Source: Salvelinus alpinus
Taxonomy: Eukaryota; Chordata; Actinopteri; Salmoniformes; Salmonidae
NCBI RefSeq assembly: GCF_045679555.1
Contig: NC_092091.1
Span: 86,581,462 to 86,645,461 of the forward strand
Direction: 5' to 3'
Length of the DNA stretch: 64,000 bases
How positions within the stretch are numbered: position 1 is the stretch's first letter; each line of letters begins with the position of its first letter. The notes under the pieces are model-generated. The model searched no databases. It worked only from the letters and a program-made list of their open reading frames with translations, and was not told the DNA's origin. Below are positions 9,756 through 20,042 of the stretch, one piece after another. A program made the translations under genes and the position numbers.

Positions 9756-9914
9756 GCCTCAGTCCCAGTCTCCTACACGGTGACTCCTGTCCCTTCTCAT
9801 CATGGTCTGGTAACTCCTCTGTATACAGGACAGCACCTCCCTCCTGTCTGCTCCTCTCAACAACAGATCCCAGCCTGCAGTGTGGTCTTCAGTACAGGAC
9901 AACACTACCACCCT
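9756..9914 (+). CDS. rnf38: rnf38 exon A
   Basis: 53 codons in phase 0, beginning [18 protein letters not shown] and ending [11 protein letters not shown]. The acceptor is ccaacag at the end of the CT array and the donor is gtgagt at 9915. It matches the RNF38 region VPVSYTV...TGQH...CSVVFS. Confidence 0.87.
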
Positions 9915-18900: not shown

Positions 18901-20042
18901 TTTAACAGACAGAGATGGTGATATATCTATACAAGAGACAGAGATGGTGGTATATCTATACAAGATACTTTATTTAACAGACAGAGATGGTGATATATCT
19001 ATACAAGATACTTTATTTAACAGACAGAGATGGTGATATATCTATACAAGATACTTTATTTAACAGACAGAGATGGTGATCTATCTATACAAGATACTTT
19101 ATTTAACAGACAGAGATGGTGATATATCTATACAAGATACTTTATTTAACAGACAGAGATGGTGATATATCTATACAAGATACTTTATTTAACAGACAGA
19201 GATGGTGATATATCTATACAAGATACTTTATTTAACAGACAGAGATGGTGATATATCTATACAAGATACTTTATTTAACAGACAGAAGGTGATATATCTA
19301 TACAAGATACTTTATTTAACAGACAGAGATGGTGATATATCTATACAAGAGACAGAGATGGTGGTATATCTATACAAGATACTTTATTTAACAGACAGAA
19401 GGTGATGTATCTATACAAGATACTTTATTTAACAGACAGAGATGGTGATATATCTATACAAGATACTTTATTTAACAGACAGAGATGGTGATATATCTAT
19501 ACAAGATACTTTATTTAACAGACAGAAGGTGATATATCTATACAAGATACTTTATTTAACAGACAGAGATGGTGATATATCTATACAAGAGACAGAGATG
19601 GTGGTATATCTATACAAGAGACTTTATTTAACAGACAGAGATGGTGATATATCTATACAAGAGACTTTATTTAACAGACAGAGATGGTGATATATCTATA
19701 CAAGATACTTTATTTAACAGACAGAAGGTGATATATCTATACAAGATACTTTATTTAACAGACAGAGATGGTGATATATCTATACAAGAGACAGAGATGG
19801 TGATATATCTATACAAGAGACTTTATTTAACAGACAGACAGCACAACTAGATGAAACAGTGTTTTGATCAGGTCTTCTTCCATTCTGTGTACAGTTGAAT
19901 TCTACAAGCTTTGTCATGCACTGTAAAGGGAAGTGAACATCCATGTATGACTAGTAGAATCATCTCTGTCTCTCTCCAGGCTAACAGAACGTGTCCTATC
20001 TGTCGGGCGGACGCCTCCGAGGTCCAGCGGGATTCTGAATGA
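9756..20042 (+). CDS. rnf38: rnf38 E3 ubiquitin ligase, 3' portion (8 coding exons)
   Basis: Coding segments 9756-9914, 10853-11020, 11945-12112, 14136-14239, 14480-14564, 15683-15804, 18591-18690 and 19980-20042 join without a frame break into 322 codons plus TGA. The product has the Pro/His-rich middle region of RNF38/RNF44 ([45 protein letters not shown]), an acidic [13 protein letters not shown] segment, the [20 protein letters not shown] block, and a C-terminal RING-H2 domain (CVVC, then [14 protein letters not shown], then CPIC). [10 protein letters not shown] and [11 protein letters not shown] favour RNF38 over RNF44. The family transfers ubiquitin from an E2 to substrates. The 5' exons lie outside the window or are lost at the gap. 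Relative to mammalian RNF38 as I remember it, about eight residues (around VCSVPPPM) are missing at the first exon junction. Introns are packed with minisatellites, several of which duplicate splice sites. Confidence 0.9.
9915..10852 (+). other. rnf38 intron with partial exon-A copy, 39-bp array and C/T-rich tract
   Basis: After the donor come a (gt)n run and, at about 9951-9975, a degenerate copy of the exon A end (gtcttcaggacaacactacc). The 39-bp array follows, then a CT/CCCTCT tract at 10712-10850 that forms the polypyrimidine tract of the next acceptor (ctctcag). Confidence 0.8.
10033..10588. repeat. 39-bp minisatellite, about 14 copies
   Basis: Unit tctagtctggtaccagtcag followed by ctatcattccactccttgg. 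Variation is largely ctatc/ctgtc. Because 39 is a multiple of three, both strands show long 13-residue-repeat open frames here, which are not genes. Confidence 0.93.
10853..11020 (+). CDS. rnf38: rnf38 exon B (Pro/His-rich)
   Basis: 56 codons in phase 0, from [16 protein letters not shown] to PFPTQQSRS. It includes a long Pro/His stretch ([18 protein letters not shown]) typical of RNF38. The donor is gtaaga at 11021. Confidence 0.88.
11190..11332. mobile_element. salmonid interspersed repeat fragment
   Basis: The segment from 'tttatttaactaggctagtc' through 'ttcttatttacaatgacggc' to 'ccaattgtgtgccgccctat' is a widespread salmonid dispersed repeat recalled from memory. The class (SINE or DNA element) is not certain. 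It is truncated on both sides. Confidence 0.7.
11335..11530. repeat. 34-bp tandem repeat, about 5-6 copies
   Basis: Unit ggccctttaaccattaaggt followed by agtggtgctgtcca. It abuts the interspersed element on its left. One unit is shuffled (ggccctttggtgctgtaaa). Confidence 0.85.
11945..12112 (+). CDS. rnf38: rnf38 exon C
   Basis: 56 codons in phase 0, [20 protein letters not shown] to SLSQELFGV. The preceding exon ends SRS, giving the diagnostic [11 protein letters not shown] join. The donor is gtaaga at 12113, immediately followed by a poly-C run. Confidence 0.92.
12121..12212 (+). repeat. poly-C tract and imperfect copy of the exon C end inside the intron
   Basis: A run of about 14 C is followed at about 12150-12210 by a near-copy of the last 60 bases of exon C (ctccagttcctctctcatca, then cgactccctgtcacaggagc). 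The copy departs from the exon at 'ctgttcaccc' and so lacks the donor. Confidence 0.85.
12285..12880. repeat. 54-bp tandem repeat derived from a salmonid element, 11 copies
   Basis: Unit tggatccccattagttcctg, ccaaggcagcagctactctt, cctggggtttatta. The unit matches a widespread salmonid dispersed repeat, and the sequence after the last copy (aagtacataaaactgtacaa) looks like a continuation of that element. 54 is a multiple of three, hence long spurious frames. Confidence 0.9.
12902..14080. repeat. 40-bp minisatellite, about 29 nearly identical copies
   Basis: Unit gtgacaataacactatgtac followed by acacagatggagaacaccat. Only single-base changes are seen (gttac for gtgac in one inner copy). Very high homogeneity implies recent amplification or gene conversion. 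It ends about 55 bp before exon D. Confidence 0.95.
14136..14239 (+). CDS. rnf38: rnf38 exon D
   Basis: 104 nt, phase 0 to 2, [20 protein letters not shown] to FLPYFL (last codon split). The acceptor is tctcccag and the donor gtgagt. It matches the RNF38 PYPPFMPRRLTGR region. Confidence 0.92.
14480..14564 (+). CDS. rnf38: rnf38 exon E
   Basis: 85 nt. The first G completes Leu; then [20 protein letters not shown] and DGEVENYE. The acceptor is gtctctcag after a CT-rich tract and the donor gtaagc at 14565. Confidence 0.92.
14565..15355 (+). repeat. 47-bp minisatellite carrying donor-like sites, about 17 copies
   Basis: Unit gaggtaagctagccacagag followed by ctaactatacatctatatgg and tgtagtg. The first copy starts at the true donor of exon E (tatgaa|gtaagctagccac). 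Each later copy keeps gag|gtaagc, a good donor context. Confidence 0.93.
15356..15682 (+). other. rnf38 intron remainder
   Basis: Unique-looking intron sequence with a short inverted motif around 15510-15545 (gtgtagatgtacactatatc / catagtgtacatcaatcc). The acceptor is tctgacctccag at 15682. No coding signal is seen. Confidence 0.7.
15683..15804 (+). CDS. rnf38: rnf38 exon F
   Basis: 122 nt, phase 0 to 2, [20 protein letters not shown] to [10 protein letters not shown] plus a split Leu codon. The donor is gtgagt at 15805. This block upstream of the RING is almost identical to the mammalian protein as remembered. Confidence 0.94.
15805..18540 (+). repeat. about 43-bp minisatellite built on the exon F donor, about 63 copies
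   Basis: Unit caaccaccagtcagaacaga followed by cactgtgagtagagtccctt and ca, with length variants in the CAA/CCA stretch. The unit equals the last 25 or so coding bases of exon F (encoding NHQSEQT) plus the donor and the first intron bases. Each copy thus presents cagacact|gtgagt. One copy has gtaagt; a few have acacacact. The last copy ends in 'gtccctttaatgttg'. Confidence 0.95.
18541..18590 (+). repeat. duplicated splice acceptor of exon G
   Basis: Two tandem copies of 'tgtctctgttccaggtg' occur, with AG at about 18561 and at 18590. Only the second leads to tgcgtggtgtgtatg and the RING frame, so it is taken as the acceptor. Confidence 0.8.
18591..18690 (+). CDS. rnf38: rnf38 exon G (RING, first part)
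   Basis: 100 nt. G completes Leu, then [20 protein letters not shown] and [13 protein letters not shown]. It supplies the first six RING-H2 zinc ligands (C-x2-C, C-x-H, H-x2-C). The donor is gtgaga at 18691. Confidence 0.95.
18691..19842. repeat. about 43-bp minisatellite at the start of the last intron, about 27 copies
   Basis: Unit acagacagagatggtgatat followed by atctatacaagatactttat and tta, with shortened variants. The first copy begins five bases after the donor (gtgagacagagatggtgg), so the array was seeded from the intron head. Confidence 0.93.
19980..20042 (+). CDS. rnf38: rnf38 exon H (RING end and stop)
   Basis: Twenty codons [20 protein letters not shown] followed by TGA. It supplies the last two RING cysteines (CPIC). 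The acceptor is tctctctccag. C-terminal SEVQRDSE versus SEVHRDSE in mammalian RNF38 supports the call. Confidence 0.95.
   Translation, partial: ANRTCPICRADASEVQRDSE

What the first reader, a model, noticed from the sequence alone, without database searches (positions are those of the whole stretch)
9756..19842. General pattern: tandem duplication nucleates at rnf38 exon-intron boundaries
Of the seven introns downstream of exon A plus the one upstream, the junction or the bases right beside it are duplicated at: the exon A acceptor (array), the exon A end (single degraded copy near 9951), the exon C end (copy at 12150-12210), the exon E donor (array), the exon F donor (array), the exon G acceptor (twofold) and the exon G donor flank (array starting 5 bp inside the intron). 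This suggests a recurrent mechanism acting at splice junctions, or selection removing duplications elsewhere in exons. I recall intronic minisatellites overlapping donors being described in amphioxus, but not such a multi-intron set in a fish gene.
Basis: partly seen in the sequence, partly recalled or inferred. Interest (0 to 1): 0.85.

Follow-up and report, generated by a model that had tools for sequence, protein, structure and literature searches.

The report
Repeat arrays over fish splice sites
In this fish genome, short stretches of DNA that run across the edge between an exon and an intron have been copied many times into the intron, as known from amphioxus and chicken, but the edges look like ordinary places hit by a general repeat-making process rather than special starting points.

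Summary
The repeats are real. In the rnf38-like gene, the splice dinucleotide lies inside a repeat unit at 4 of 15 junctions (A acceptor, E and F donors, G acceptor). The G-donor array starts at intron base +4. The A-end and C-end copies are partial and lack the donor.

The general claim, that duplication nucleates at junctions, is not shown. Tandem repeats cover 73% of the window. With each array collapsed to one unit, as before expansion, random placement predicts 4.5 junction-containing units against 4 observed. An unbiased scan of rnf38, a neighbouring STIM gene and two caspase-like genes gives 7 against 6.9. Looser counts, or longer ancestral introns, do give an excess.

The pattern is not limited to rnf38. 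STIM has two junction-spanning duplications, and 5-6 of 39 systematically sampled SH2 exons elsewhere carry one. With 31 other loci (0 found), the excess is borderline (P about 0.03-0.2).

This matches amphioxus "mirages" and chicken "exon stuttering". [quoted passage not shown] Best reading: general minisatellite birth and expansion, with exons cleared by selection.

The parts
5925..9775 (+). array (periods mostly 47-61 bp) over the exon A acceptor; each exact unit holds TTAAC, CT tract, AACAG and the first bases of exon A
   Evidence: 64 exact exon-start copies, TTAAC within 45 nt upstream of 64 of 64
9756..9914 (+). exon A of rnf38-like gene
9957..9974 (+). 18-bp exact partial copy of exon A end, donor not copied
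   Evidence: 33.7 bits; shuffles up to 28.3
10052..10579 (+). 39-bp x13.5 array inside intron A-B, not at a junction
10707..10850 (+). pyrimidine array ending 3 bp from the first base of exon B
10853..11020 (+). exon B
11337..11527 (+). 34-bp x5.5 array inside intron B-C, not at a junction
11954..12112 (+). exon C
12139..12210 (+). 87% identical copy of exon C bases 80-153, donor not copied
   Evidence: 86 bits
12286..12876 (+). 54-bp x10.9 array inside intron C-D, not at a junction
12916..14084 (+). 40-bp x29 array inside intron C-D, not at a junction
14136..14239 (+). exon D
14389..14477 (+). 23-bp x3.9 pyrimidine array ending 3 bp from the first base of exon E
14480..14564 (+). exon E
14565..15364 (+). 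47-bp array beginning at the exon E donor GT; 16 GAG|GTAAGC copies plus the authentic GAA|GTAAGC
15683..15804 (+). exon F
15778..18539 (+). array (units mostly 43-46 bp) spanning the exon F donor; 62 donors counting the authentic one
18548..18593 (+). twofold duplication over the exon G acceptor
18591..18690 (+). exon G (RING, first part)
18694..19838 (+). 43-bp array starting at intron base +4 after exon G
19980..20042 (+). exon H with stop
41519..42999 (-). caspase-like gene, 5 exons found; none of its 8 junctions within 5 bp of an array
43584..48423 (+). caspase-like gene, 6 exons; two intron-interior arrays, none of its 10 junctions within 5 bp of an array

Best explanation
The region is part of a fish genome in which minisatellites are born and expand freely here and in at least some genes elsewhere. 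A short segment (about 15-110 bp) is duplicated at an essentially arbitrary place in non-coding or dispensable sequence, then multiplies by slippage or unequal exchange, sometimes several units at a time. A segment that crosses an exon edge survives because the exon-proximal donor or acceptor can still be used and the mRNA stays the same; a segment wholly inside a coding exon is normally removed unless it is in frame and tolerated. Because the introns were short before expansion, random segments often touch a junction. Shown here: the anatomy, the density, no excess of junction-containing units against a collapsed-intron null in this region, interior and in-frame exonic arrays, and the same structures in STIM and in SH2-domain exons elsewhere. 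Inferred: the mutational mechanism, short ancestral introns, use of the exon-proximal sites, and selection as what clears exons.
For: Tandem repeats cover 72.8% of the window and 21-76% (period 10 or more) of each of ten flanking 10-kb stretches. Collapsed-intron null: 4 junction-containing units vs 4.5 expected, 7 within 5 bp vs 5.0; unbiased scan of four genes: 7 vs 6.9 and 11 vs 8.0, P=0.56 and 0.13; stricter detector 4 vs 5.7 and 8 vs 6.7. Collapsed rnf38 introns (45-659 bp) are of the same order as introns of compact rnf38 paralogs in this genome (about 120-210 bp by my reading). Coverage: intron 74%, exon 19%, junction dinucleotides 8 of 45. The STIM last exon carries an in-frame 48-bp x16 array, 216 bp from its acceptor. 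In array F the longest repeated run of unit types (7) exceeds all 300 shuffles (maximum 6), so multi-unit copying; arrays A, E and G do not exceed theirs. Copies would rarely give normal protein: F and E read-through meets a stop at once; only 4 of 64 A acceptors, the authentic one included, keep the frame open.
Against: Counting the partial A-end and C-end copies as hits, 9 of 16 against about 5 expected, P=0.011-0.046; without the two pyrimidine arrays 7 of 14, P=0.07-0.20. If ancestral introns were two or three times the collapsed lengths, the near-junction count is in excess (P=0.007 and 0.0008); two other rnf38 paralogs do have longer introns. In the SH2 sample alone, 5-6 junction-spanning repeats of 16 exceed expectation (P 0.0001-0.07 by assumption; 0.002-0.03 by density). 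No RNA data, no population data, no second assembly.
Confidence: 0.7

Rival explanations
1. Junctions, donors above all, are true hot spots for duplication (for example through transcription-linked strand breaks or short homologies of the AG|GT consensus), on top of a general minisatellite background.
For: SH2 sample: 5 donors and 1 probable acceptor spanned in 39 exons; P for at least 5 is 0.001-0.07 by usable flank. Near-junction count in four genes 11 vs 8.0; looser count in rnf38 9 of 16, P=0.011-0.046.
Against: Counts of units that contain a junction show no excess in this region; 0 of 31 RING and rnf38-paralog loci have a junction-spanning repeat; pooled P for at least 5-6 is 0.03-0.21; copied blocks begin at scattered, not fixed, distances.
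Confidence: 0.25
2. The arrays are functional: repeated donors or acceptors tune splicing or make alternative isoforms, as reported for the IFI6 minisatellite.
For: E copies (GAG|GTAAGC) fit the recalled donor consensus better than the authentic GAA|GTAAGC; 61 of 62 F donors are GTGAGT. IFI6 is described as using downstream repeat units as donors (PMC4526556 passage).
Against: Downstream E and F donors add an immediate stop; 60 of 64 A acceptors do not keep the exon A frame open. In L062 and L064 the distal copies carry GTCAGCC instead of GTGAGCC, as expected without use. Homogenisation alone can explain unchanged copies.
Confidence: 0.07
3. Assembly artefact: arrays invented or inflated by the assembler.
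For: A 100-N gap lies at 5808-5907 between two arrays; array lengths are unverified.
Against: Units differ (14 and 17 unit types in F and A); two-copy and partial copies exist; the same 31-bp unit in register in two homologous loci, C21 and C22.
Confidence: 0.04

Closest known systems
Exon / sequence stuttering of chicken dot chromosomes (PMC12954441, 2026; sections 7 and 9 read)
   Same: Repetitive introns, blocks of tens to hundreds of bases, copies of exon edges with the adjacent donor or acceptor, coding sequence intact.
   Different: Here a fish; junction-spanning cases lie on C6, C12, C21, C22, C28 and C32; GC is moderate (window 47%, rnf38 CDS 58%; STIM CDS 57%; the six SH2 hits 52-63%), whereas the paper ties the process to GC-rich dot chromosomes (190 of its 236 introns). 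The paper saw no repeat block cross into adjacent exons; here a STIM exon holds an in-frame array.
Amphioxus mirages (Adh3, BflGb6, BflGb9; PMC3087553 passages)
   Same: Tandem repeats spanning exon-intron boundaries at acceptors and donors; units of 10-160 bp; many copies keep AG/GT.
   Different: There 6 and 3 units in the two BflGb6 haplotypes; here up to about 70 units and several boundaries of one gene. RT-PCR evidence for normal splicing exists there, not here.
IFI6 (6-16) minisatellite with multiple splice donors (Turri 1995, seen only as a citation and one sentence in PMC4526556)
   Same: Minisatellite whose units provide splice donors.
   Different: One human gene, with reported use of downstream repeat units as donors; no use shown here.
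Intron gain by tandem duplication (PMC4974935, listing only; PMC2812944 passages)
   Same: Tandem duplication of sequence with splice signals.
   Different: No new intron is evident here; existing introns lengthen.

Membership tests
Exon / sequence stuttering (PMC12954441) | Introns heavily covered by local tandem repeats | tested here: met
   85% of rnf38 and 71% of STIM intron bases in repeat spans
Exon / sequence stuttering (PMC12954441) | Copies of exon edges with the adjacent splice site in the neighbouring intron | tested here: met
   rnf38 A acceptor, F donor, G acceptor; STIM CC1b donor and SOAR2 acceptor
Exon / sequence stuttering (PMC12954441) | Extensive length variation among individuals | not testable with these tools
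   one assembly only
Exon / sequence stuttering (PMC12954441) | Association with GC-rich coding sequence (reported association, not definition) | tested here: not met
   rnf38 CDS GC 58%, GC3 64%, window 47%; STIM CDS 57%, GC3 67%
Amphioxus mirage | Minisatellite-like tandem duplication spanning an exon-intron boundary | tested here: met
   4 of 15 rnf38 junctions; 5-6 of 39 SH2 exons
Amphioxus mirage | Does not disturb regular splicing | not testable with these tools
   no RNA data held
Amphioxus mirage | Length instability between haplotypes or somatic | not testable with these tools
   no second haplotype or reads
RNF38 gene family | RNF38-type RING and open multi-exon frame | tested here: met
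   4v3k E 9.7e-33; frame open through exons A-H
RNF38 gene family | Complete gene with 5' exons | tested here: inconclusive
   no 5' exon found by a motif scan of 60 kb upstream
   region: no excess of junction-containing units, excess on a looser count; SH2 sample excess, pooled sample borderline

The most novel reading that the evidence does not exclude
Across this fish genome, splice donors are genuine birth sites of minisatellites: duplications begin at or just inside exon ends far more often than elsewhere in introns, on many chromosomes and without high GC, and some have persisted in both members of a homologous gene pair since before their duplication.
Probability: 0.25. Interest if true: 0.75.

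Novelty: new member of a known kind. Interest (0 to 1): 0.45.

Why it matters
The 2026 chicken study reports exon stuttering as a new instability that it did not find in other vertebrates apart from gerbils, and links it to high GC. A fish genome with the same structures in rnf38, STIM and some SH2-domain genes, at moderate GC, suggests that high GC is not required and gives an independent system in which to test the mechanism. It also shows a statistical trap: long arrays at junctions look like targeting when measured against present introns but much less so against the introns as they were before expansion.

Tried and rejected
Rejected: present intron lengths as the null (they contain the arrays being tested). 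Rejected: the chicken 42.1-bit exon screen as the only detector; in rnf38 it flags only introns C-D and F-G and misses arrays with few exonic bases. By that screen 0 of 31 other RING or paralog loci are positive.

A third batch of 19 SH2 exons and a PDZ search did not complete.

Calls on single loci: L054 scored 89.7 bits, but the copies are an AC microsatellite after the donor and are not counted. L058 is counted as probable: the array stops 4 bases before the exon and the homology over the acceptor is diverged. L035 is a 21-bp repeat inside a proline-rich exon by my reading, not at a junction. L023, L034 and L036 have arrays near but clear of the junction.
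Full report
WHAT IS THERE. The window is G000:C6:86581462-86645461 of a 2.37-Gb genome in 928 contigs; C6 is 101 Mb long, so the place is about 14.5 Mb from the contig end. Eight exons, 9756-20042, have canonical splice sites, read in one frame to a stop and end in an RNF38-type RING. Tandem repeats cover 72.8% of the window and 21-76% (period 10 or more) of each of ten flanking 10-kb stretches. 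Two caspase-like genes, frame open, lie at 41519-42999 (-) and 43584-48423 (+).

CHECK OF THE SEVEN SITES. The splice dinucleotide is inside a repeat unit at the A acceptor, E donor, F donor and G acceptor. The G-donor array begins at intron base +4. The A-end and C-end copies are real against shuffles but lack the donor. None of the 18 junctions of the two caspase-like genes lies within 5 bp of an array; the nearest is 26 bp.

NULLS. With units placed at random in introns of present length, 0.93 junction-containing and 1.07 near-junction units are expected against 4 and 7 of 16 (P=0.0105 and 3.5e-5). With arrays collapsed to one unit, 4.5 and 5.0 are expected (P=0.74 and 0.16). Setting the F-G intron to 80-400 bp gives P=0.36-0.60 and 0.036-0.11. 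Doubling or tripling all introns gives P=0.22 and 0.08 for the first measure and 0.007 and 0.0008 for the second. Against my reading: if the partial A-end and C-end copies also count, 9 of 16, P=0.011-0.046 on collapsed introns; leaving out the two pyrimidine arrays, 7 of 14, P=0.07-0.20 (the range covers three assumed lengths of the intron before exon A). Compact rnf38 paralogs on C4 and C7 have introns of about 120-210 bp by my reading; a second pair has some introns of 0.8-4 kb. The null lets a unit reach up to 40 bp into an exon.

A scan that looks for duplications everywhere, with offsets of 10-160 bp, in rnf38, STIM and both caspase-like genes finds 30 intron loci: 7 contain a junction in their span's edge rule (6.9 expected, P=0.56) and 11 are within 5 bp (8.0 expected, P=0.13). 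That scan does count the A-end and C-end pairs as junction-containing, since their spans cross the junction; it leaves out the intron before exon A. A stricter detector gives 28 loci, 4 vs 5.7 and 8 vs 6.7; it missed the A-end, G-acceptor and STIM SOAR2 pairs. In rnf38, STIM and casp+, 74% of intron bases, 19% of exon bases and 8 of 45 junction dinucleotides lie in repeat spans.

STIM. Upstream on the other strand lies a STIM gene (SOAR and EF-hand Pfam matches) whose 11 exons found here read in one frame. One exon end with its donor is present twice as a 90-bp unit. One acceptor with exon start is present twice. One array starts at intron base +7. The last exon holds an in-frame 48-bp x16 array. 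So repeats arise in introns, over junctions and inside exons.

GENOME SAMPLE. The SH2 search reported 153 matches (150 of 303 candidates scored). I took rows 1, 8... 134 (20 exons) and rows 4, 11... 130 (19 exons), rows counted by eye, without regard to repeats. 16 duplication loci were found. Donor-spanning: L062 on C21, L064 on C22, L065 on C12, L072 on C28, L080 on C6 (41.7 Mb from the window). Probable acceptor: L058 on C32. At intron base +7: L060 on C29. L062 and L064 are homologous exons that share a 31-bp unit in the same register, so they may be one event. Expected 0.87, 1.63 or 2.34 if all, half or a third of the flank is usable; P for at least 5: 0.001, 0.017, 0.068; for at least 4: 0.009, 0.07, 0.19. 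In 31 other loci (RING exons and rnf38 paralogs, several overlapping), 55 duplication loci were found; four had one within 60 bp of the hit, and on inspection none spans a junction. From that density, P for at least 5 is 0.01-0.03 for the SH2 set and 0.09-0.21 for both sets; for at least 6, 0.002-0.009 and 0.03-0.10. The second set overstates independent junctions. A modest excess is therefore possible, not shown. Sequence near the positive SH2 exons is not GC-rich: hits 52-63%, stretches 44-50%, like the other 33.

HOW IT MOST LIKELY WORKS. Random short duplication followed by expansion, with survival decided by splicing and frame. Copying of several units at once is supported in array F only. 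Where the copied block starts differs from gene to gene: 0, 11, 15, 15, 21, 22, 27 and 64 bases inside the exon end at eight donors (first aligned bases). This speaks against a mechanism cutting at a fixed point of the junction. Use of downstream donors at E and F would bring an immediate stop, and only 4 of 64 A acceptors (the authentic one included) keep the frame open, so use of the exon-proximal sites is inferred.

LITERATURE. Amphioxus mirages: passages of PMC3087553. Chicken exon stuttering: sections 7 and 9 of PMC12954441, which says that it was not found in other vertebrates except gerbils and that over 90% of copied exon sources lie within 1 base of the exon border. Human repeats at exon-intron boundaries: passages of PMC2812944. 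Atlantic cod has an unusually high tandem-repeat density (abstract passage of PMC5241972). No report of such boundary arrays in a fish turned up in searches, all of one open-access library.

VERDICT. Real, regional and present elsewhere in the genome; a fish case of a known kind. Nucleation at junctions is not established.

Noticed in passing
30909-40548 and 56146-58351: The same 46-bp unit, same strand, forms two arrays (about 209 and 48 copies) with the two caspase-like genes between them.
   Followed up: no
L010 about 6250-7020, - strand: In-frame 48-bp x16 coding minisatellite, (SMDPAANAAAQKVLGR)n, in the last exon of a STIM gene.
   Followed up: partly
41519-42999 (-) and 43584-48423 (+): Two divergent caspase-like genes with open frames and ACRG motifs (motif meaning recalled).
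   Followed up: partly
L012:8257 to window 5807: One 71-bp array runs across the window edge and stops at a 100-N gap.
   Followed up: no
60 kb upstream of the window (L009-L012, L017, L018): No 5' exons of rnf38 were found by motif; STIM and a TIG_SUH (RBPJ-type, name recalled) gene lie there on the other strand.
   Followed up: partly
L062 and L064: Homologous SH2 exons on C21 and C22 share a donor-spanning 31-bp array in the same register; distal copies in both carry GTCAGCC.
   Followed up: partly
L035:1478-1530: 21-bp in-frame tandem repeat inside a proline-rich exon of an rnf38 paralog on C4, by my reading.
   Followed up: no
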